The notes beneath the pieces are model-generated. The model worked only from the letters and a program-made list of their open reading frames with translations, searched no databases and was not told the origin of the DNA. From Seiridium cupressi (taxonomy: Eukaryota > Ascomycota > Sordariomycetes > Amphisphaeriales > Sporocadaceae), in the NCBI GenBank assembly GCA_036674765.1, contig JARVKI010000019.1:124001-188000 (forward strand): 64,000 nt of DNA, written 5' to 3'. Positions 580-48,578 of this stretch are shown here, one piece after another (position 1 is the first letter of the stretch; every line of letters begins with the position of its first letter). The translations under genes and the position numbers were made by a program.

Positions 580-1669
580 CTATGAATGATGGTGATGAGT
601 GTCATCCTCTGTCTCGGGGGGAAAGGGTGGATCGGCCCCTTCCAACGAAGGGTCCCACGCTGGATTTGTGCCCGCATCTCGCCAGCGGATCGATCGAGGT
701 CCTCCCATGTTCCATTCCAATATAGAGTCGAAGTCGCGGCAGGTGTGCTGTGACGACCAATCGGGCAATGCATCTCGACGTTGAGGCTTGTCTAACGGGT
801 CGTAGAACAGCGCCGGCGTGACATCTGCGGTACACATGAGGCTCATACGTAGCATGTCTATGCAATGATCTAGAACTGATGTCAATACTACCACATATTC
901 AGAGGTTTCATTATGATTATGAGCCCGCTTACCAAAGTGAGTGAAGATGTTCTCCTCATGCACGCCTTCGTCGTACTGTTTGTAGTACTTGTCATAGTTA
1001 TACCACAGCCCCATTCTCAATGTGTTCTATCAATCATCAGTTATCAGTTATCAGCGGCGGTAGGAATATTAAGTGCTGTAACAACATGTACTCACTAAAC
1101 AATGGAGCAGATGGAATACCTCCAGCATGGCAAGATAGCCTCCGCCTTGTTCCTCTGGTACCTTGTGCCATGGTCCTTCAGTTAAGGCTGTCTTGTTCAG
1201 CGCAAGCATCTCCTCTTCGGTGATCCGAATACCACCAGCACCAAGCTCTATGTAGTGCCAAGCGACATCGACATCGTCCGAGTGTACACCAGGTTTTGCT
1301 CGCCACTTGTTCGTCTGCCTAAAGTCGGCATGATATAATTGGGGGTCCAGGTATTGTACTGCTTTTAGTGCTGGAGCTATGAGGTGTTTAGTATAACCCT
1401 TGACTGTGAATAGATGGCCATGACATACATGGGGTAGAGAATTGTCTAAGACATGCTTGAAGACTCGCTTCTCGTCTGTGAGGACCCCAAATGCTAGCGG
1501 CAAGGCAGAAGAGTGTGAAGAAGTTGGTGCATATGAGTATAGCAGTAGAATTACCAGACAACCTGGACCATATTCTGTCGAATACCGGCTGGGAGTTTGG
1601 CGATTTCTTTTGGCTGGAAGTCTCTAGCTGAGGTAAGCTCTGGTACAGTGTCCCTTGCTTCGGCCACAT
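580..1669 (-). CDS. UstYa-like oxidase (DUF3328), RiPP-type
   Basis: Exons on the minus strand are 1669-1429, 1376-1096, 1026-933 and 869-580, giving 301 residues; all introns are GT-AG and keep frame. The ATG at 1669 is followed by a cytosolic N-terminus and one membrane helix at about residues 42-61. The family signature is present twice: HLLHC at 169-173, running into CLNTLR across intron 2, and HFDHC at 204-208, followed by IDMLR; the second motif is only formed by splicing intron 3. The C-terminus ends in a run of histidines. UstYa-family proteins (UstYa/UstYb, PhomYa, AprY) catalyse oxidative cyclisation of ribosomal core peptides in ustiloxin, phomopsin and asperipin pathways. DUF3328 members also occur outside RiPP clusters, but here a Kex2-repeat precursor lies head-to-head 948 bp away, which favours peptide modification. 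Confidence 0.88.
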
Positions 1670-2616
1670 CGTGACTCCCTGATCTGGCTTATACCACAGG
1701 AAACTTTCTTTGTTGTGTTATGCAAGAAGAAATAGGCGAAACAAGCGTTGAGGCTTAGGACTCATCACTTCAAAAGTGTATTGCGCAATATCGACGGATG
1801 CATTGAACGGTGCCGGTGCTCCATCCATCTTCTTCGACGGATGTTGGAGCCGACACGTGTGTATTACATGGCAAATAAGCATCGCCAATACTCTTTGATG
1901 ACATGGTAGACGGTATGCACTAGCCGATGGTTCGATTGTAGGCAGTGGCGAGAACTTTACAACCTGCCGGATTGAGTCTAGTCACTATGGGGAAGACCCG
2001 TTATGCAGTTCCGTAGGATGCGCTGGTGGAACCTTATCTTGGAACTTTTGGACAGATTTTGTGTAACCCTATTCGTAGAACCCGACTAGAGTATACCCAA
2101 CCGTTCTTCTCTATGAACCCGGGGCTGGCGAAGCACGATGAGCGTGACCAGTGGATGTCTATGTTGCCACTGCACCGGCGCGTCAGCTTCGCGTAAGGAT
2201 GTAGATCCTGCTTATTCTGTCATGTGCGATGCGGTTCATAGGTCTGGACGGTGAAACCCCTGATGATGAACCCTGAAAGACTCGGATATTGTCGTTTGCC
2301 AATGCATACATGTGCCTCGACTGCATTAGCTGCAGTTTCCCTACACTAGATAGGCAATTCCATTGGCACCCTACCCCTTCTAGACCTGTCCTGAGTGCTT
2401 TGATTGGACTGGTCTGCGTCATGACCATCATGGATCCAGGCACTGGTAGTCCTTCAATACCCGGGTCTGTGGATTAAACCGAAAGGTCCTGCATGCAACA
2501 TGGTGAACTTAAATTCCCAAGGTATCCTCTGCTGTGCCGCATAGGTTTGATCATAACTCAACATTCATTGAATATTCTTCTCAACCAACTCATTACTCAA
2601 CTCTCAACCCTCCAAG
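1670..2616. promoter_or_regulatory. divergent promoter region, UstYa / precursor
   Basis: A 947-bp intergenic stretch separates the divergent starts of the UstYa-like gene and the repeat precursor. No other coding signal is convincing. The 75 bases before the precursor ATG are rich in CAAC/CTCAAC, like an efficient fungal 5' leader, and the start context is AAGATGC. Co-regulation is an inference from the arrangement. Confidence 0.5.
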
Positions 2617-2986
2617 ATGCAACTGTCCATTCTCACCGTCCTCGGCTTCCAGGCCGCCGCTGTCCTGGCTGCCCCAGTCGCCGACTACACGGATCTCGCC
2701 AAGGACAGCATCATTATCAAGTCTACAGACACCTACAAGCGCGATTACCCCGATCTAGAGAAGGACAACATCATCATTAAGTCTTCAGACACCTACAAGC
2801 GTGACTACGATGATTTGGCCAAGGACAACATCATTATCAAGTCTTCTGACACTTACAAGAGAGACGAGGTATGCTTCCGATGTCCCAGCCTCTCGTTAGC
2901 ACACCTCAGAACAGTAACTGACCACGATGCAGTATGCGGACCTCGCCAAGGACAGCATCATTATCAAATCATCCGACGGCTACTAG
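2617..2986 (+). CDS. secreted Kex2-repeat RiPP precursor (UstA-like)
   Basis: Exons 2617-2868 and 2933-2986 encode 101 residues. Residues 1-18 or so form a signal peptide (hydrophobic, ending VLA-AP). The rest is four near-identical tandem units. Units 1-3 follow DY-x-DL-x-KD-(S/N)-IIIKS-(S/T)-DTY and end in the Kex2 dipeptide KR. Unit 4 starts DEYADLAKD, ends SSDGY and lies mostly in exon 2, so it has no trailing KR. The nucleotide copies are also very similar, indicating recent duplication. UstA-, PhomA- and AprA-type precursors share this plan: the leader is removed, KexB cuts at KR, and the core tyrosine is oxidised by UstYa proteins. Each unit has a Tyr near both ends, so the core cannot be fixed from sequence. 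A non-RiPP Kex2-processed secreted repeat peptide is the alternative. No mating-pheromone motif is present. Confidence 0.85.
2680..2986 (+). repeat. four tandem ~60-bp coding repeats
   Basis: The 60-bp unit encoding the peptide repeat starts at about 2683, 2743 and 2803. The fourth copy begins at about 2863 and is split by the 64-bp intron at 2869-2932. The copies differ at few positions, mostly at the third residue (T/P/D), at A/E and at S/N. Confidence 0.85.
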
Positions 2987-3149: not shown

Positions 3150-4229
3150 TCATGATTCAAAGTCTTCTTCGAATATTTCAACTCCATCAACCTTGGCCTC
3201 AAGGTCTGCGAAATGAAGATTAACTTGTGTCAGAAATTTGAAGCCACGGTTACGAGTCTTACCAGTACCATCGTCACGCAGACTGATAGTGTTCGTATCG
3301 CTTGCCAGTAGCTTAAGCTGAATGGGTGTGGTGCCACGGCGTCCGGCGTGCGAATTGAGTTCCGAAATATTGTAGATCTCATTACCATTGACCATCGCAT
3401 GAATTGTACCGACTAAAATCGCCGGAGATCCTAGTTAAAACTACACGCATCTATTCAGCAGCCTCAGTGGGACGGGCTTACCTAATAGGTCGCTGACTTT
3501 ATAATAAAGCTTGAGTCACTGCTGAGCCTCACTGTCCGTGACGTTTCGAAAGGCAACCCCTCTGTTGCCTATGGTGTCCTTAGAGTTGTTGGTGCTTTAT
3601 GAACAGGGGCGTTGACTCATCAGATTTCCTCGACAATATGGGTTGCTCGGCCGCGCACCTCTTCTTCACAGTGGGGTAGGTCACAACGCCAGTTTTAAAG
3701 TCAACCTTCCACATGTCATGCCAGTCCCTGTCTATGTGCAAAGTCTTGGCATTGCAAGAGAGTCAGCGTCTCACATACCAAAGCTCAATCAAAGACAAAC
3801 CTACCTAGTATCGACTTTCAACGGCAGCCAGACGTAGTCCGAAACAGCTTCCCACGCCGACTTACCCAATATCTCCTATTAGGCTTTGCCAGCTTCGGTC
3901 GCCAGGCACCTGTGGCAGATGGCACAACCTGGCCAATAAAATGCCAGTTTAGCAAGTCTGTGGAAGAGTATATATCCGGAGTTACATATGTCATCAACGG
4001 GTCAATATGGTGCATCACTCTGTGTGTGCGACACGTGGAAGACTTGCTGTTAGTGTCAGGAGCACTGTGACCGATACAGTAGAATGTGCTGCGGTGCTGG
4101 AACACTTGCCCACCATGAGCATCGATCTTGTTGCCGGTTGTGTCAGACCAAGTAGTTCCCGACGCAATCCAAGATGCGGCAGTGACGCTCGGGGGCTGCG
4201 AGAAGCAGAGAAGCTAGTCTGCGAAACAT
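3150..4229 (-). pseudogene. broken GH43-like glycoside hydrolase
   Basis: An ATG at 4229 opens a signal-like peptide (MFRRLASLLLAAP), which runs out of frame in a run of five C (minus strand; plus 4191-4195). In the shifted frame the sequence continues as ASWIASGTTW, then DAHGGQVFQ, DIYSSTDLLNW and WRPKLAKPN. These resemble the start, the AHGG element, the YSSTDLVNW element and the RPKV element of GH43 galactanase-like enzymes. Downstream parts (VWLPLKVDT near 3810, a C-terminal piece at 3150-3395 resembling a carbohydrate-binding domain) lie in different frames with stops and missing sequence between them. The family call rests on remembered motifs. The gene is clearly not intact, although one or two interruptions could be introns. 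It sits between the RiPP-like pair and the regulator, on the regulator's strand. Confidence 0.6.
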
Positions 4230-5143: not shown

Positions 5144-6998
5144 TCAGATGTTCGGATTAGACGGGACCCAGTATGAGTCAAAGTGAGGGATTGAGACCCC
5201 ATTGTCACGATAATGGCACTCCGAGGGCTCGAAAAGGACAGGCCCTGATCCTACATCCCACCGCCCCAGTTCCGATGGGCCTGGTCCACAATCAGCTTTT
5301 TGAGATAGGATATTAGCGTAGCATTCCAACTGTTTAAGAACATCTCGCATGTCTTGCATTTTATCGCGATCTGTCTTCTTCACCAGGTCCTCCAAGAAGA
5401 GCATGGCCGTTCTGGTCAACTCTTTGTCAGACTCGATCGCCTTATAAGGAGGCTGAACCAAGCTGTTGGCTGTCAAGGAGATTAAGCTAGAATTATGGGC
5501 ACATAGTGTCATGCTTTAGATCCAGTCAGTGGCTAGATCATGTGTGTGTGTGTGTGTGTGTATAGGATGGAACGCACTGGATGAAGAACGTGTCAATCGG
5601 TACGACTGTTGCATGCAGCCTCATGTACTCCCGGCACTCATTCACAAGTGTGTGCCACCCTTGAGGCACTGGCGCACGCAATATGACTTGCCCTGCGGTG
5701 ACCTTCCCACCATAGTCTTTCATATGTCCCATCCACCTGGAGTAGTGGAATGAGTCCCATGCGCTAGCAAAACTGATCAGAGCACGGCATGATAGACGGG
5801 TAGAATATAGGAGACAGAAGTATCTGGATAGCCCAGGCATATCGGCTTGTAGTAACTTCGTGGTATGGAATTCAGGTGGGATTTTGGAAGTCCAGTCATC
5901 AAGCATGTGGGAGATGTGTGCGACGTGTTGCGCTCTCTCTTCGGAGGTGGACTTTTGTGCGGATGCTGAGTAGACACATTCGTAGACTTTTCCTTGGATA
6001 GTCGCGAGATCTACTCGAGAACGGAAGAAGTTCATTTTGGTGTGGCCATCAGCCGCAAATATGAATCCAGTCAGATCATCTTTGGCCTCGAATGGCGGCA
6101 GGTCCAAATCAATATCCTTGTCAAGCTGTACCGGCGGTAGCCTATCACGTAAACTGATATCTCTGTCAAGAATATACGCTATCCAGAAAACTCGGTTTCG
6201 CTGCAGTGCCTCAATTGGGCTCAGCTGATAAGAATGTTTCCTGCTATGGAAACCAAGTCGGTGGGCGAGACGCAACGCGGTAGAGACGAGATATAGGGCC
6301 GGGCCTAAATCATCGGCTGTCCAGAATAACACAACCAGCCCAAGAAGCACCTGGACATTGGCCAAGTCCGCGTCGCGCATGATAACCTCCGTCAGAACCG
6401 ACTGGGCGTTGTTTAGGTAGGTGACAGCGTTACCTATCAGGGACGTATCACATGGGCGGCTAGTATGATGACCGAGCGCGAGCACAACATTAATCAATGC
6501 CCAAATGACGGGATTTCTCGAGTGTGGATTCTGGTACCAGGTTTGGACCTTCTGTAAAAGCGTACCCGGGTGGAACAGGGGTAGGATGGAGTTGAAAGTA
6601 GCAAGGTAATGCTCGACCACGGGTAGGACATCCATGTATGGTGGTAGTTCAAAGACAGGTGAGCTTGGTGCTTGGTAAGTCTGGCTAACATTTTCGCTGA
6701 CATGTCGTGATGTTGAGCATGGGGCATCTTGTTGAGAACCCGAGGTCTTTTCAAGCCTCTCAATCTTATCCAACACTGTGCTCAGTTGGTCTTCGAGGAC
6801 CTGGACGCGAGACTGCAAGGCACTTTCTCGCAGCTGCCGTTGAGCAGTGGCCTGCTTCCGTGATGGCGCCTTGCGACTAGCAGCTTTGTAGGTGCAGTCG
6901 GATTTGAAAGCTACACATGTAGAGCAATGGGGTATTTGGCCATCGCACTTGATTTTCCTCCGGTAACAGAGGTCGCAGGCCTTGGATGAGAGACTCAT
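5144..6998 (-). CDS. Zn2Cys6 transcription factor
   Basis: Exons 6998-5578 and 5486-5144 give 587 residues. The N-terminal binuclear zinc cluster is complete (Cys 8, 11, 18, 25, 28, 35; CDLCYRRKIKC core), followed by a basic linker and a coiled-coil stretch (about 60-85) typical of a dimerisation element. A fungal-specific middle homology region starts around residue 120 (LPPYMDVLPVVEHYL) and includes an ALRLAHRLGFH motif. The 91-bp intron carries a (TG)n tract. Such proteins act in the nucleus as pathway activators or repressors. The gene is divergent from the MFS exporter at 7774, which makes control of that exporter, and possibly of the RiPP-like pair, plausible. Confidence 0.9.
5541..5562. 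repeat. (TG)n microsatellite inside an intron
   Basis: About ten TG units lie within the only intron of the Zn2Cys6 regulator. On the coding strand this is a CA tract starting about 16 nt after the donor. Confidence 0.9.
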
Positions 6999-7773
6999 GT
7001 TAGTGCTAGCTAAAACTAGATACCACCGTGGGTGGGGGCTATCGAAATAGTGATACCTTTCTTTGTGGATGGATTCCTTCCGTCATATTATTTATGAAGT
7101 TGGGTGTTTCTGGTCCATAGATGTTCTCGTGATGTGAAGCAGCTCCTGGGAGTCAAGGAGATTCGGCCTCATGGTGGGGAAAGGATAGAAACAAGTGTTT
7201 AGGAATCAACTGGTTCCGCGGAGGTTCCGTTGACAAATCTCATGAGCTGGCGGGAGTGGGGCTGAAGCTCCTCTGACCAATATGATGGACGCTAGTGTTA
7301 ATTATGCGGTTCCTCGATCAGAGATCAGCACGTAGCTAAGACAATGTACCCCTCTTAACAGATATTTCTATACTAATCGTGAAGATCGAAAGCTTCCGTG
7401 GAAGCATGGAAGTAGAGAAGCAAGCAGGCTTACAGGTTACCCTTGTCCTGATTTTGGCATGTTGAAGTTCCGTGTTACAAATGTGCCTGCCATTCAAGTT
7501 CCGTCACCAATGTTCTGAATCTAGTTCCAAGTTCTCTCGTCCCAATAAAGATCTCAAGATTTCTCTCTGCAATCAAAATGAATACAACAGGCATTTGACA
7601 AAAGAAAAGTCCCACAAACATCCGACCAGATCACATCTGCAAGCAACCAGCGATACCGTCCTACCTGAACCCACCACATTGTCGAACCGCGCAATAAGCG
7701 AACCCAGTTGATAAATGCTAGACTCTCTTGTATCTCAGGCATATTCACGGATACTTCGATCTTTCCGTGTACA
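6999..7773. promoter_or_regulatory. bidirectional promoter, regulator / MFS exporter
   Basis: A 775-bp region lies between divergent ATGs. It contains a perfect CCGCGG palindrome at 7216-7221 followed by a further TTCCG, and a CCAAT at about 7278. CGG/CCG half-sites are what Zn2Cys6 proteins bind, but a site this short is weak evidence. Confidence 0.5.
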
Positions 7774-9607
7774 ATGTCAACATTGGCACTCTATATGTCT
7801 CCCAATCAACTAGAGAAAGATCCAGAACACGCATCCGCCCAGGGAAATACACTCGACCGCGGTCAAAATGGTGGAACAGAGGATAGGGGCCTGAATATAC
7901 CGCCTGAGGAATCATCAGCGGTTGATTCTGAGCAAAAAGGAAGGACAATACGTAGATTCCGCTGGGTCATCATCTGCGTCTCCCTCTACATTACATGTGC
8001 TCTCTATGGCCTTGATACGACGATTGCAGCAGATATTCAAGGTCCTGTGGTCGAAACATTGGGCCACGTAGAGCAACTGGCCTGGGTTGGCGCCGGTTTT
8101 CCCTTGGGTTCCGTATGGTATGTGATTTTTAGTGTATCTCATTGCCTGTTCCAGCTATCTCTTGTGGCCGCATCCGCAATTCCTCCTAAAAAAGTAGTGC
8201 TCACTGCTGACTGACGCATCTAGCGTTATCCTTCTGCTCGGTACTTTGTACAATACGTTCAACATGAAGTGGAACTTCATTACGACCGTGGTGCTCTTCG
8301 AGGCCGGATCGGCTCTTTGTGGCGCCGCCCCGAACATGAACGCCATGATCGTTGGTCGTGTCATCGCCGGCGCCGGCGGCAGCGGTATATACCTCGGGTC
8401 ACTCCAATATTTTGCAGTCATGACGGAGGAGAAAGAGCGCGGCTTCTACATGTCTCTCATCGGCGTGTCTTGGGGGCTTGGGGCAGTGCTAGGGCCGGTC
8501 ATTGGCGGTGCCTTTGCTGTGTCTGCCGCAACCTGGCGCTGGGCCTTCTATATTAATCTGCTAATTGGAGCCCTGTCTGCCCCGGCCTTCTTATTCTATC
8601 TTCCGTCCATTCACCCAATCCAAGGGGTCAGTATCCGCGATCGTCTGGTTACCATTGATTTTGTTGGCTTCATCCTTGGTGCTGGTGTCTGGGTTAGCTT
8701 TCTACTCGCTCTGACGATGGCCGGCGGTCAATGGCCATGGAACGACGGACGAACCATCGCCACCTTTGTCGTATTTGGCGTGGTGCTACTTGTTTACATC
8801 CTACAGCAATACTTCGCGTTCTTCACCACACCGGACCGACGCCTCTTCCCGGGTCATCTATTGCGCGATCGCACGCAGGTCCTGTTGTACGTAGTGACCG
8901 CGGCAGGCACCACAACACTTTTTGTCGTCGTCTACTATATCCCTATTTACTTCCAATTCGTCAACGGTGACGCGGCTCTCATGGCCGCCGTTCGACTACT
9001 CCCCTTTGTCGTCGTAGCCGTTACTGTGAACCTTGTGTCAGGGTCCTTTCTCCATTTCATCAAGATTTACATGGTGCTATACTTTATAGCAGGTGTGTTC
9101 TTGGTAGCCGGGGGTGGTCCGCTTGTTGTTTTCCTAGATCCCAGTTCGACGACAGGCACCATCTACGGTTTGACGGTACTCGTCGCCATTGGCGCCGGCC
9201 TGTCAATGGTGACTTCCTTTACAGTCGCCTCGTTGACGTTGCATCCGAAAGATGCGGGCGCCGGGATCAGCTTGCAGAATGTCGCACAAATCGGCGGTCA
9301 AGTCATATCGCTCGCCGTCGCGAGTCAGATCTACCATTCAACGGCTTTAAGGAACCTCTCGTTGGTCTTGGCAGGCAATGGTTTCTCGGATGCGGAGATC
9401 CGGACCGCGGTGGCAGGCACCCAGAGCACCCTGTTTGAACAGCTGGAGGGGGAGCTGCGGGACAAGGCAATTGTGGCTGTCGCTAAAGCAATGCAAATGA
9501 CCTTTGTTTTAGTACCCGTGGCTGGAGGTGTTATGCTGCTCGTTTCTCTATGCATGAAGCGCGAGAAGCTCTTCGGAACGGTTGCCACTGTCGGAGCTGG
9601 TGCATAG
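7774..9607 (+). CDS. MFS drug/metabolite exporter, DHA 14-TM type
   Basis: Exons 7774-8117 and 8224-9607 (intron 106 bp) give 575 residues. A polar cytosolic N-terminus of about 60 residues precedes the first helix, which carries GLDTTIAADI (Asp 81), the DHA2 TM1 motif. Also present are the VGRVIAGAGGSGIY element and the motif-C-like GLGAVLGPVIGGAF around TM5. Members export small toxic molecules or secondary metabolites by proton antiport at the plasma membrane. The start is taken at 7774 because the frame upstream lacks another ATG with a plausible leader. Its divergent Zn2Cys6 neighbour suggests specific regulation. The substrate is unknown; a peptide product of the nearby RiPP-like pair is one possibility. 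Confidence 0.92.
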
Positions 9608-43800: not shown

Positions 43801-45405
43801 AATATCTTCCAAGATCGTCGCTGTCCCTTCCCGCAGTCAAGATAGGCGTGCTGGCTGTGGGACAATACTGCATATGGCCTACTGACAAGCCTCACGCTAC
43901 TGTCCAACTTTTTGGTCAAATCTGCTGCTGTGGAATGCGTGGTCGCTTAGCCAACGTCGCTTGACTTTCTGCTCTTGCGGCAAGATAGCGGGCGCCGAAA
44001 GCTAATGCGTGAGCAAGACACAGACACTGCAATCATGGACAAGGCAATGCACAGTGCTCAGAGCCAATATCTTGTGATTTGCGAAAAAAGAGTCCTGCAA
44101 TGCAATTGGAAGGGAGGGTGGCAGACGCACCCCCCTGCCCGCCACGGACCGCTTATTGTGCCTGATCCCGGTCGCAGCCCGTCGCATTTGCTCGAGGGGT
44201 ACATGCGAAAGAAGTACATTCTGAAGCAGCGAAGCGCCATGCAGCTAATACCAGGGGCAGCATTCCCAGGGTTTGGCGGTTTAGCGGATGATCTGGTACA
44301 AAAGTATCTGGGCATCCGCCGAGGCATGAGCCGTCCGGGGGGTCTCCATTGATGATTCGCATTTTATTGCTTGCCTAACCGTCTCGGAGGCGCGCAGCTG
44401 CTGGGTGCTTGCTGGCTCACTACCTTACATTTGCCCTTACATCAGGACCACCTCTATCCTGAACTTCCGAGCTCCGCCGGCAATTCTACACTTCCACTCA
44501 TCTTCCTACCCAGCTCGCAACGGCGTGACATGGACTTAGCCAAGTGCAGTGATTGAAGCTCACGAATTGGTAAAAACTTTTGGCTGCGACTGACTCTTCG
44601 GATACTCGTCCCAAAGAGGAAATCGAAAAGACGTTCATTAACCCTCAGTTTGGCGTAAAGATAATCGCACGTTAGTTCCTCAAGCGCCGGGCCTGTCGCA
44701 AAGCAAAGCCGGAACTCGTCAACGCAAGCAAAGGCCACGGGTTTGGAGTTTCGGACGTGAGGCAGAGTTTTGGAGGGAAGGGATATCGCGGGCCGGATCT
44801 CGCGAGGTTCCATTTGGGCTGGGCAATTTCAAGTTTCCTGAACGAGTCGCACCACGGCTTTTTCGGCAGTCCTTCGAAATAGGCGAGGGTTTAATCGTTG
44901 GGCAGCTCATCAATTGTACACCGCACCACGCAGCCTAGCAAAGTCTTCCGCAGATGCAGGGCGCCTTTCGCAGCCTCCCGTCCAGATTGAGAATCTCCGC
45001 CCTCCGAAGTACCTCAGCTCAGAATTCCGAGCTTCTCTGCGTTTCCTCCTGAAGCCCATCCGATTAGCGCCTATCAGTCAAATCGTTTGGGAAACCAGGA
45101 CCAAGATCGAGGGGTCGCACCGCGTTTTGGTTCATCGGCCTTCCCCGTTGCGATCTTGTCGGAGTGTTCAGTCTGTGCACAGGTGACAGGTCTAGGACTG
45201 GGGCGAATCTTCAGTGTTTGCAAGCCGGCTGGGACGGAACTGCTTCAACATTGCTTCTTAGACCGGGCCTGGAGTAATTCGAGCTATTCGCGTCAGGCTC
45301 AATCTTGGTACATTTTGCTCGTTCCAAACCAACAGGCTCCGGCTCCGGTTCAGCCTCCACGGAACGGTGCAATATTCAGTTCTTGGTCTTCTTGCTACAG
45401 TTGTA
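37886..45405. other. 7.5-kb stretch without recognisable gene
   Basis: Short overlapping frames occur in all phases, especially at 42.5-43.6 kb, but none shows a known domain, an ATG plus splice structure, or low-complexity coding bias. A T-arm-like word near 41690 lacks the rest of a tRNA. The last several hundred bases are probably promoter and 5' leader of the gene starting at 45406. Confidence 0.45.
37981..38020. repeat. A-rich tract
   Basis: A-rich (GAAAA)n-like low-complexity sequence, about 40 bp, just 3' of the dehydrogenase. Confidence 0.85.
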
Positions 45406-47522
45406 ATGGCAACATTCACTGCTTTGAACGGGAATGAGCCCCAAGCGACAGAGAGTTTGAACCGCAGCCCTGCTTCGAAGCCGGTAGAGACCGAGGAGCG
45501 TGGTGCCACAGCTGGTCAGGAGCAGAGGACATCGGGGGAGGTCTCATCCAGTCAACGGGAACATTGGTCGGGTGGCAGCGGGGAGAGGGCTGCATACCAG
45601 GCAGCGGATTATGCTTCCTACGATGGTGTTCATAAGCGCAAGCGATCTACCTCATCCGAGCCTCGTAGAGAAGCCGCAGGTCTACCGGATGAGAGAAATG
45701 CAAGTCACCACCACCCGGAATCACGTGATATCTATGGAGCGCATCACCGAGAACGGGATCACCGTTCCTATGGTGACGAAGGCAGGGAAGACTCGTGGTA
45801 TTCGCAGTCGCAGTCCCAAAGAGATGGCAGGACTGCATATGATCAACAGCACTCGAGCGGATCGATATTGCAAAATGAGGAACAATCTGGAGATGGACTA
45901 AGAGGCGGTCCGGGAACAGCCGATTCACAAGATTATTCACCAACCAGTCCTGATGATGGAGATGACTCTGCGTATTACGGGGGTTCTTATACGTCAGATC
46001 ACCGGAGAGACGGTGCCGTCCAATCTGACCCTAAGAAGAGAAAGCGCAACTTTAGCAACCGAACCAAGACCGGGTGTTTGACATGCCGCAAAAGGAAGAA
46101 GAAGTGTGATGAATTGAAGCCCGAATGTGAGTTTCTAGAATTCGAAGCAAAGACTGTGCTTGCAATAACAAACTAAACAATCTTAGGCAACAATTGTCTT
46201 CGCGGCGGCTTCCTTTGTCAGGGATATCCCAACCAGCGAGGTTACCAAAAGATGGAAAGCAAACCCACGGCCGTACCACTCGAGTCGAAAGACCCCAGTT
46301 ATGTGCCTCCTGGCGCCTACGGGATGCCACAAGCACAATCACCATATGTAAACCATTTACAACCACCGTCGAAACGGGAGCCGCCACCGCCATTCCGGGG
46401 TCCATCTTTGCGTATAGATCCTCCGCAAGGCCGAACAATACATTCCGAAGACGAGCAGACCGCATCCACAATCCCAACGGCATCGGTTTTCAGCCCGGAC
46501 AACAAACCTTCAGCTGTGTCTGCTTACACGACACCAGCGAACGTGTTCCCTACGCCGATCAGTGCGATCAGCTCGGCTAATACCAACTTTGGCGAACATC
46601 GAGGAATGCAGAAAGAATACCAGAGAATACCTCCACTACATGACACCAGCCGGACAGAACCCGAGACTCCCCATCCAGGCAGCGCACTACCGCAGATTAA
46701 CATTTTCCAACCCACACGGACTAGCAGCCCAGCGAGACAGCCACAGCCACCCACAAGCAATGCACAAGTAGCTGCCCAGCTGGCTCTAAATCATAATCAT
46801 TTTGCTGCCGCGAAACGACCGCCGACACAGAAGGAGTTGATGCTACGCGGGGAATCGTATAAACCTTTTGACAAAGAACTTGTGCTTGAGCGGGAAAGGT
46901 GCAGTGCTGCTTGCTGGCGGTTCAACAACGCGACCAACCCTAATAATGGAGTATCAGCAGCCGAGAGAGCTCGCTTATTCCATGAAATCTTGACGCCATC
47001 GGAGCCGATTCACCTTTCCCCAACGCAGACTTCCCCCGTCAATGCTCAAGGCCGAGTAGGAGTAGAATGTGTGGTCGAAGCCCCCTTCGTTTGTGACTAT
47101 GGCTACAACATCAGCATCGGTGACAACGTCTTCATTGGTCGGAACTGTACGGTGCTGGATGCCTGCTCTGTCACAATCGGGAAAAATGTCTACATTGGCC
47201 CCAACGTTAGCATCTTCACAGCCACTCTCAGTACCGACCCTGGCAAACGCGGGGGCAGCAAGAGCTCCCAGGTTGGTAGGAAAATCATGATCGAAGACGA
47301 TGCTTGGATTGGTGGAGGTGCCATCATCCTGCCTGGTCGACGAATCGGCAAAGGGTCCACGGTGGCGGCGGGTTCTGTTGTCACCAAGGTATGTCCCAAC
47401 CTTTTTTTTTTCTTCAGCTGTCTCCACTTTGCTAACCAGAATCACAGGACGTCCCGAACTTTGTCATCACTGCTGGAAATCCCAGCCAGATCATCCGAGG
47501 CGTCACAACCGGCTCGCTATGA
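45406..47522 (+). CDS. Zn2Cys6 - maltose/galactoside O-acetyltransferase fusion
   Basis: Exons 45406-46126, 46187-47388 and 47448-47522 give 665 residues. A disordered charged N-terminus leads to a complete Zn2Cys6 cluster (Cys 224, 227, 234, 241, 244, 251) that is split by intron 1. After a long Pro/Gln/Ser linker comes a maltose-acetyltransferase N-terminal block (KELMLRGESYKPFDKELVLER, about 455-475). A left-handed beta-helix follows with hexapeptide repeats (ISIGDNVFIGRNCTVLDAC, VTIGKNVYIGPNVSIF, WIGGGAIILPGRRIGKGSTVAAGSVVTK, then VPNFVITAGNPSQIIRG from exon 3). Fusions of this kind are known in Pezizomycotina. At the position of the usual catalytic His (TATHPLDP in bacterial enzymes) this protein reads TATLSTDP, so it may sense or bind rather than acetylate, or use another residue (inference). 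Confidence 0.88.
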
Positions 47523-48578
47523 TTTATGTTTTAAGAACTACCACTGCGGTCTGGACAATTTTGAGTTCCTCGCAACCAGGGCGTGAGGGTCGATTGGTTT
47601 GAACCACGCTCTTCACCTCCGAAAAGTGGTGCCTTTTGTTTCCTTAAGGCACCTGACGTCAAACCGACTCAACGGCGACATCTCTCCAGAGGAAATATGC
47701 TCATTTCTGTGGTCATAGGCTTGAGCTGCTCCTCTGCGTAGAGGGTCTGATTGAATCTCTCCTTCATCAACACACCCTTGAGATATATGTTCTCTCGGAC
47801 ATATGCAAAAAACCTCATAATCATTGTTTTCCCGTTGTTTGCCATTGTTCATGATACCCGAAGATGTTGTTTTTTGTATTCAGTGGGGGGGAATTAGCAC
47901 AAACAGCTTGCCTCACATAACCACGATCTTTTCCCTGTCTTGTGGGAGGGGGATTTGGCATTGTCGCGATGCAGATGTTGCTAGAGCGGATATGATTTCG
48001 CGTCGTTTTGTTAGCTATTTGTTAGAAGTCGTTGCGTGTGCTCGAGAACACCAAAAATTTAAAGGGGTAGTAGATAGGATCAGGATGCGAGGACATCATC
48101 AGCTCTGGAAGCTTACATATACTTGGGGAAGGCGCGCAATTTTTCTTGCCGTCGAGTCGCTGCTTGACAACATGTGCATGAGCAGGCAGGATCATTGGCA
48201 TGTATAGGATCACCATCTGTGGAACCAAGGGCAACGGACAATAATTATATAACATTATTATTAAACTCGTTTCCCATAATCCTTATACCGGCAAAATCAG
48301 GAAAAGGCGTTAAAGTGGCCAGATTCGGTCTTGTGCGATTTGGTAATATATCTGTGAGTAGACACTCAGTACGTCCGTACAGACCTCGCATGAGCCCTGA
48401 TTACGACATCGGTCTGACACGTAGTCTGGCATTCAATGTATCCTTCGTGATCGAGGCGTTGGATATAACAAACATGGCGTCTCCACAGATCCCATCCAGC
48501 GTTTCTGAACTTGCATCACATATCCTGAGTCTTGCTTTGATACCGAACACACGACGACAGTCTCCGCAAGAGGTTTGT
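47523..48578. other. intergenic between convergent genes
   Basis: 3' flanks of the acetyltransferase fusion and of the oxygenase. Frames at 47824-48207 and 48174-48671 have no recognisable features. Confidence 0.5.

What the first reader, a model, noticed from the sequence alone, without database searches (positions are those of the whole stretch)
580..2986. Undescribed-looking fungal RiPP locus: UstYa-like oxidase head-to-head with a four-repeat Kex2 precursor
Seen directly: a signal peptide, then four units of about 20 residues, three ending in KR, beside a DUF3328 protein with both HxxHC motifs correctly formed by splicing. Established knowledge: this pairing defines dikaritin-type RiPP pathways (ustiloxin UstA/UstYa, phomopsin, asperipin-2a). 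The unit DY-x-DL-x-KD-(N/S)-IIIKSSDTY does not contain the YAIG, YVIPID or FYYTGY cores, so a new cyclic peptide is possible.
Basis: partly seen in the sequence, partly recalled or inferred. Interest (0 to 1): 0.92.

Follow-up and report, generated by a model that had tools for sequence, protein, structure and literature searches.

The report
Small fungal cyclic-peptide gene pair
A fungal genome carries an intact gene for a secreted precursor made of four near-identical peptide units, back to back with a gene for a copper-type oxidase of the family that cross-links such peptides; it is a believable new example of a well-known kind of natural-product gene pair, with no chemistry shown yet.

Summary
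Window 2617-2986 (+) encodes a 101-aa protein with a signal-like N-terminus and four units (DYxDLxKD[NS]IIIKS[ST]D[TG]Y), three ending in KR. Divergent from it, 947 bases away, window 1669-580 (-) encodes a 301-aa UstYa/DUF3328 protein (PF11807, E 1.8e-49) with a membrane-type helix and two HxxHC motifs. The units differ mostly at silent sites (pS 0.62, pN 0.12). Likeliest reading: a small ribosomal-peptide pathway in which Kex2 releases the units and the UstYa protein oxidises them, probably cross-linking Tyr. With one UstYa gene and no tyrosinase or S41 peptidase match nearby, it resembles the asperipin-2a and epichloecyclin loci more than ustiloxin. A regulator and a transporter at 5.5-9.6 kb may belong. 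Repeat precursors were found at 3 of the 12 UstYa loci I could read (of 30 in this genome). A published survey found 1758 of 7878 such precursors near DUF3328 genes, so this is a new member of a known kind. Eight strings of the core gave no paper in the open library searched. Orthologues and chemistry could not be tested: the protein database was off and no other fungal genomes were held.

The parts
2617..2986 (+). Kex2-processed repeat precursor gene, 101 aa, two exons (2617-2868, 2933-2986)
   Evidence: Gene model and translation; tandem repeat score 221; pS 0.62, pN 0.12 between units; no second copy found in the genome
2617..2682 (+). Signal-like N-terminus, residues 1-22 (MQLSILTVLGFQAAAVLAAPVA)
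   Evidence: Mean hydropathy above 1.2 for 11-residue stretches starting at residues 1-14; no signal-peptide predictor available
2683..2742 (+). Unit 1 DYTDLAKDSIIIKSTDTY-KR
2743..2802 (+). Unit 2 DYPDLEKDNIIIKSSDTY-KR
2803..2862 (+). Unit 3 DYDDLAKDNIIIKSSDTY-KR
2863..2986 (+). Unit 4 DEYADLAKDSIIIKSSDGY-stop, interrupted by the intron
2869..2932 (+). Intron of the precursor gene, 64 bases, GT-AG
580..1669 (-). UstYa/DUF3328 oxidase gene, 301 aa, four exons (1669-1429, 1376-1096, 1026-933, 869-580)
   Evidence: PF11807 E 1.8e-49, 169 bits; model and splice sites; genome search hit C19:124706-125377
1099..1113 (-). First HxxHC motif (HLLHC, residues 169-173), inside exon 2
   Evidence: Residues, placed by the exon coordinates
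862..939 (-). Second HxxHC motif (HFDHC, residues 204-208), coded by 939-933 and 869-862, joined across intron 3
   Evidence: Residues, placed by the exon coordinates
1670..2616 (.). 947-base region between the two divergent start codons, candidate shared promoter
   Evidence: Start codons at 1669 (-) and 2617 (+); promoter role inferred, not tested
5541..7082 (-). Zn2Cys6 transcription factor frame, candidate pathway regulator
   Evidence: Zn_clus E 8.6e-10 and Fungal_trans E 4.8e-20; membership of the cluster inferred from position
7669..9604 (+). MFS transporter frames (7669-8211 and 8198-9604), DHA2/EmrB-like, candidate exporter
   Evidence: 8198-9604: MFS_1 E 5.3e-25, TIGR00711 108.7 bits, below its curated cut-off of 230.2; 7669-8211 alone had no Pfam match and is joined by position only; membership inferred

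Best explanation
A compact ribosomal-peptide pathway. The precursor enters the secretory route, Kex2 cuts after each KR and a carboxypeptidase trims KR, giving three 18-residue units and one 19-residue last unit. The membrane-anchored UstYa protein, with two coppers held by the two HxxHC motifs, oxidises the unit, most likely joining a Tyr side chain to an aliphatic carbon nearby (favoured: the C-terminal Tyr to the Ile-Ile-Ile-Lys stretch in IIIKSSDTY). A neighbouring regulator and transporter may control and export it. Shown: both genes, their intact reading frames, the motifs, the divergent layout and the silent-site pattern between units. Inferred: secretion, Kex2 cutting, copper binding, the oxidation, the cross-link and its position, and the two helper genes.
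For: Intact UstYa with both motifs, a hydrophobic stretch at residues 42-60 and Pfam fit. Precursor units conserved in protein but not in silent sites: pS 0.62, pN 0.12, C-terminal half pN 0.071 against 0.168 for the N-terminal half. Tyr is invariant at both ends of the four units; in print 65.6% of repeats of DUF3328-linked precursors contain Tyr against 38.2% of the others. DUF3328 genes are most frequent at the position next to the precursor gene. Two more repeat precursors in this genome lie 1.8 and 2.4 kb from UstYa matches, one of them also divergent. One P_proprotein match in the genome, on C53, the domain expected of Kex2. CctR work shows a family member to be a binuclear copper enzyme that loses activity when the HxxHC residues are changed (PMC12435403, passages). 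Asperipin-2a is made with one such enzyme, and its putative cluster is precursor, UstYa homologue, transporter and reductase (PMC6514808, passages).
Against: No transcript, mass or mutant data. No orthologue was or could be sought in other fungi. In print only 22% of such precursors sit near DUF3328 genes. The unit is longer than the 4- to 9-residue cores of known members. The proximity of my three precursors to UstYa matches is weak evidence: by chance 2.0% for a 2.5-kb limit, 3.1% for 3 kb, 10% for 5 kb, in DNA chosen for holding UstYa genes and with limits set after seeing the data. 9 of the 12 UstYa loci read had no precursor by these scans. In a poorly resolved tree of 13 UstYa sequences the window protein does not group with the C14 one; the C41 one was too short and was left out.
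Confidence: 0.68

Rival explanations
1. The UstYa protein acts on this precursor but adds oxygen or another group (hydroxylation, halogenation) instead of closing a ring.
For: DUF3328 proteins are implicated in hydroxylation and halogenation as well as macrocyclisation, and CctR is a shown hydroxylase.
Against: For ustiloxins, asperipin-2a and phomopsins the DUF3328 proteins are reported as indispensable for cyclisation; Tyr is invariant here.
Confidence: 0.14
2. The precursor yields linear secreted signal peptides and the UstYa neighbour is a bystander.
For: 6120 of 7878 repeat precursors in print have no DUF3328 neighbour; the genome has 42 UstYa matches at 30 loci, so chance neighbours exist.
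Against: Immediate divergent neighbour; the residues after the three KR sites are DY, DY and DE, not the XA or XP of the STE13 signature that the 2019 survey links to hormone-like precursors and reports absent from cyclic-peptide precursors (PMC6339444, passages), though the first unit is preceded by APVA; two further precursor-UstYa pairs in the same genome.
Confidence: 0.13
3. A remnant of a larger dikaritin cluster that lost its tyrosinase and other enzymes and is no longer active.
For: The only tyrosinase match on this contig is about 121 kb away and no S41 peptidase (PF03572) match is on it; decayed-looking neighbours: a galactanase-like GH43 piece at 3821-4213 and half a 2-hydroxyacid dehydrogenase domain in one frame just left of the window.
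Against: Both genes are intact with GT-AG introns and the units look protein-constrained; a single-DUF3328 pathway is known.
Confidence: 0.05

Closest known systems
Asperipin-2a pathway (aprA, aprY, aprT, aprR), Aspergillus flavus
   Same: Repeat precursor, a single DUF3328 enzyme, a transporter, no tyrosinase among the four genes (PMC6514808 passages); the asperipin core, like the units here, ends in Tyr
   Different: Hexapeptide core against an 18-residue unit ending IIIKSSDTY; no aprR-like reductase seen beside it in the frames scanned
Epichloecyclins (GigA), Epichloe
   Same: Four imperfect repeats with KR sites, a DUF3328 gene in a four-gene cluster, nona- and octapeptide products said to be cross-linked between an N-terminal Ile and Tyr (PMC7317419, PMC9233826, PMC6514808 passages); here the conserved end is also nine residues with Ile first
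   Different: 27-residue repeats, Tyr internal to that core, and a kexin gene in that cluster; here the only P_proprotein match of the genome is on another contig
Ustiloxin and phomopsin pathways (dikaritins in the strict sense)
   Same: Signal peptide, KR-separated repeats, UstYa family
   Different: They use two and five DUF3328 proteins plus a tyrosinase; here one and none. Their cores are four to six residues
Kex2-processed repeat proteins with a DUF3328 neighbour (1758 of 7878 in Umemura 2020)
   Same: The general kind; DUF3328 most frequent at the adjacent position
   Different: Five strings of this core not found in the main text of that paper; its supplementary table not readable here

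Membership tests
Kex2-processed repeat protein (definition in PMC7329392) | ER signal peptide | tested here: inconclusive
   Hydrophobic N-terminus with an Ala-rich end; the defining program SignalP was not available
Kex2-processed repeat protein (definition in PMC7329392) | At least 3 tandem repeats of at least 8 residues between Kex2 sites, none over 100 residues | tested here: met
   Four units of 18-19 residues, three followed by KR; the first is bounded upstream by the signal region and the last by the stop, so only two lie strictly between two KR sites
UstYa / DUF3328 (PF11807) | Pfam score above the curated cut-off | tested here: met
   169 bits against 25
UstYa / DUF3328 (PF11807) | Two HxxHC motifs (HxxHC(x)nHxxHC) | tested here: met
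   HLLHC at 169, HFDHC at 204
UstYa / DUF3328 (PF11807) | Membrane helix near the N-terminus | tested here: met
   By hydropathy only: best 19-residue stretch 42-60, mean 1.96
UstYa / DUF3328 (PF11807) | Copper-dependent oxidation | not testable with these tools
   Needs enzyme assay
Dikaritin, five-gene definition of Ding 2015 as told in PMC12048977 | Precursor with leader and repeated cores | tested here: met
Dikaritin, five-gene definition of Ding 2015 as told in PMC12048977 | Tyrosinase in the cluster | tested here: not met
   Only PF00264 match on this contig is C19:247616-248107, about 121 kb away
Dikaritin, five-gene definition of Ding 2015 as told in PMC12048977 | Multiple DUF3328 proteins | tested here: not met
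   One PF11807 match on contig C19
Dikaritin, five-gene definition of Ding 2015 as told in PMC12048977 | Methyltransferase | tested here: inconclusive
   None seen, but only 29 of the 104 window frames of 110 aa or more were scanned
Dikaritin, five-gene definition of Ding 2015 as told in PMC12048977 | Transporter or peptidase | tested here: met
   MFS frames 7669-9604, membership inferred; no S41 peptidase (PF03572) match on the contig
[quoted passage not shown]
   Enzyme present and adjacent; its action on this precursor not testable
Epichloecyclin | Repeat precursor plus DUF3328 gene | tested here: met
Epichloecyclin | Kexin gene in the cluster | tested here: not met
   Only P_proprotein match of the genome is on C53
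Epichloecyclin | GigA-like core sequence | not tested
   No GigA sequence was fetched or compared

The most novel reading that the evidence does not exclude
The locus makes a cross-linked peptide of a new scaffold, closed between the C-terminal Tyr and the Ile-Ile-Ile-Lys stretch (or between the two Tyr-bearing ends of the 18-residue unit), and it is one of at least three independent precursor-UstYa pairs with unlike cores in one fungus, one of which has no Tyr and would need a Trp or aliphatic cross-link.
Probability: 0.4. Interest if true: 0.55.

Novelty: new member of a known kind. Interest (0 to 1): 0.36.

Why it matters
If the product exists it adds a core to the few fungal peptides known to be closed with DUF3328 enzymes, a family whose copper chemistry was reported in 2025 (PMC12435403). 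With one oxidase and a short precursor, the pair is a simple test of what these enzymes need in a substrate. The two further pairs in the same genome, one without Tyr, would let enzyme and substrate be compared within one organism.

Tried and rejected
No solved structure of the UstYa family was found by sequence (two weak unrelated hits). No structure prediction was asked for: the tool admits window proteins read letter by letter, and this protein is spliced. Weak Pfam and NCBIfam hits of the precursor, all below cut-off, were rejected as repeat noise. A kinship of the three precursors' units was tested and not accepted: shuffle figure of the best pair 0.0034 for window against C14, 0.031 for C14 against C41, 0.18 for window against C41, not corrected for choosing the best pair; the UstYa tree gives it no support (13 tips, query-anchored, stops read as X; rows with 60 or fewer residues, the C41 protein among them, and duplicate loci left out). 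A literature search with epichloecyclin terms was swamped by unrelated words. A zinc-cluster binding-site scan did not run and was dropped. The organism was not identified; an ascomycete is inferred from the many UstYa genes.

Full report
What was checked. The window is C19:124001-188000 of an unnamed 45.4-Mb, 228-contig genome. I rebuilt both genes from the raw sequence. The precursor runs 2617-2986 on the plus strand in two exons with a 64-base GT-AG intron. It reads MQLSILTVLGFQAAAVLAAPVA, then DYTDLAKDSIIIKSTDTYKR, DYPDLEKDNIIIKSSDTYKR, DYDDLAKDNIIIKSSDTYKR and DEYADLAKDSIIIKSSDGY. The UstYa gene runs 1669-580 on the minus strand in four exons; its 301-aa product matches PF11807 with 169 bits against a cut-off of 25 and carries HLLHC at 169, HFDHC at 204 and a hydrophobic stretch at 42-60. 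The two start codons are 947 bases apart and the genes diverge.

Is it real. Between the four units silent differences outweigh replacing ones: pS 0.62, pN 0.12, ratio 0.10; the second half of the unit (IIIKSSDTY) has pN 0.071 against 0.168 for the first. Six pair comparisons of four units are not independent and copy correction between repeats can distort such figures, but a chance reading frame would not be expected to show this. No second copy of the precursor was found in the genome. Two different repeat scans over 294 kb (the window, its 30-kb left flank and 200 kb around other UstYa genes) gave three repeat precursors, of which this is one. One search also gave two rows rejected on sight (an L011 glycine/arginine tract and an L024 frame) and the antisense of the L018 repeat.

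Surroundings. Left of the pair: half a 2-hydroxyacid dehydrogenase domain in one frame, two frames without a Pfam match, then a JAB-MitMem_reg protein, Utp25 and ribosomal protein L17. Right: a decayed-looking galactanase-like GH43 piece, a Zn2Cys6 regulator at 5541-7082, an MFS transporter at 7669-9604 whose longer frame scores best with a DHA2 efflux model, though under its cut-off, then an R3H/SUZ-like frame (both matches under the Pfam cut-offs), a cwf18 splicing factor and a PPR protein. So the pair sits in an island of roughly 14-15 kb between genes that look like housekeeping. I scanned 29 of the 104 window frames of 110 aa or more. Genome-wide searches put the only tyrosinase match on this contig about 121 kb away and no S41 peptidase (PF03572) match on the contig. 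The genome's one P_proprotein match, expected of Kex2, is on C53.

The rest of the genome. PF11807 gives 42 exon-level matches, which fall into 30 loci when matches within 10 kb are grouped. At 3 of the 12 the scans found a repeat precursor: here; at C14:580770 (+), 1.8 kb from and divergent to the UstYa match at 578443-578967, with three (A)E(E)DL(E/D)PGAWNAVVITSSAE units and no Tyr; and at C41:298312-297875 (-), 2.4 kb from the UstYa match at 300729-301187, with four units containing LYWASTLL. At 9 of the 12 they found none. No second copy of either was found. The nearest UstYa paralogue of the window protein by best hit among the loci held is the C14 one, 33% identical over 174 aligned positions, but a 13-tip tree of low support does not group them, and the C41 protein was too short to be in it. 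Among the 294 kb read, 27% lies within 2.5 kb of a UstYa match, so three of three there has a chance of 2.0%; with limits of 3 and 5 kb it is 3.1% and 10%. The DNA was chosen for its UstYa genes and the limits were set after the fact.

What is known. Umemura 2020 (PMC7329392; abstract, section 6 part 1 of 2, sections 7 and 13 read) found 7878 such precursors in 1345 of 1461 strains; [quoted passage not shown] 2560 precursors had no homologue, so an unmatched core is common. Venturia inaequalis alone was given nine dikaritin clusters by similar criteria (PMC9632046, passages). CctR work (PMC12435403, passages) describes DUF3328 as a binuclear copper family and shows the two motifs to be needed in CctR. 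Asperipin-2a has one DUF3328 gene, and the epichloecyclin cluster of four genes includes one. Eight strings of this core and four of the two other precursors gave 0 papers in the open library searched.

Reading. The most economical account is a minimal ribosomal-peptide pathway in which the UstYa protein oxidises Kex2-released units, probably cross-linking Tyr. It is like asperipin-2a and epichloecyclins in parts list and is not a dikaritin by the five-gene definition. The core is most likely the C-terminal nine residues, IIIKSSDTY: it is the more conserved half, it abuts KR, and epichloecyclins also include nonapeptides with Ile first; this is inference. The rivals are hydroxylation or the like in place of cyclisation, a bystander UstYa gene, and a decayed cluster. 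Nothing here shows chemistry.

Judgement. Observation confirmed; interpretation partly supported; new member of a known kind; interest 0.36.

Noticed in passing
L018:3770-4129 (+), genome C14:580770-581129: A second repeat precursor, three units (A)E(E)DL(E/D)PGAWNAVVITSSAE separated by KR and without Tyr, divergent from the UstYa match at C14:578443-578967; the acceptor of its intron is not settled.
   Followed up: partly
L025:7312-6875 (-), genome C41:298312-297875: A third repeat precursor, 145 aa, four units containing LYWASTLL with KR sites, 2.4 kb from the UstYa match at C41:300729-301187.
   Followed up: partly
L029/L030, genome C10:649916-654520: Two UstYa matches beside a tyrosinase match (C10:654176-654520), parts of a ustiloxin-type cluster; the repeat scans found no precursor there.
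   Followed up: partly
window 3821-4213 (-), with further short frames down to 3150: A decayed-looking GH43 galactanase-like piece (PDB best E 1.7e-06) with no Pfam match, between the precursor and the regulator.
   Followed up: partly
L011:9398-9718 (+), just left of the window: Second half of a 2-hydroxyacid dehydrogenase NAD-binding domain in one frame; whether the gene is whole was not resolved.
   Followed up: no
window 45262-47583 (+): A frame ending in a Zn2Cys6 piece followed by a frame with Mac and hexapeptide acetyltransferase domains.
   Followed up: no
genome G000, 30 loci: 42 exon-level UstYa matches at 30 loci, several in groups (C67 four, C56 four, C14:273-277 three matches).
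   Followed up: partly
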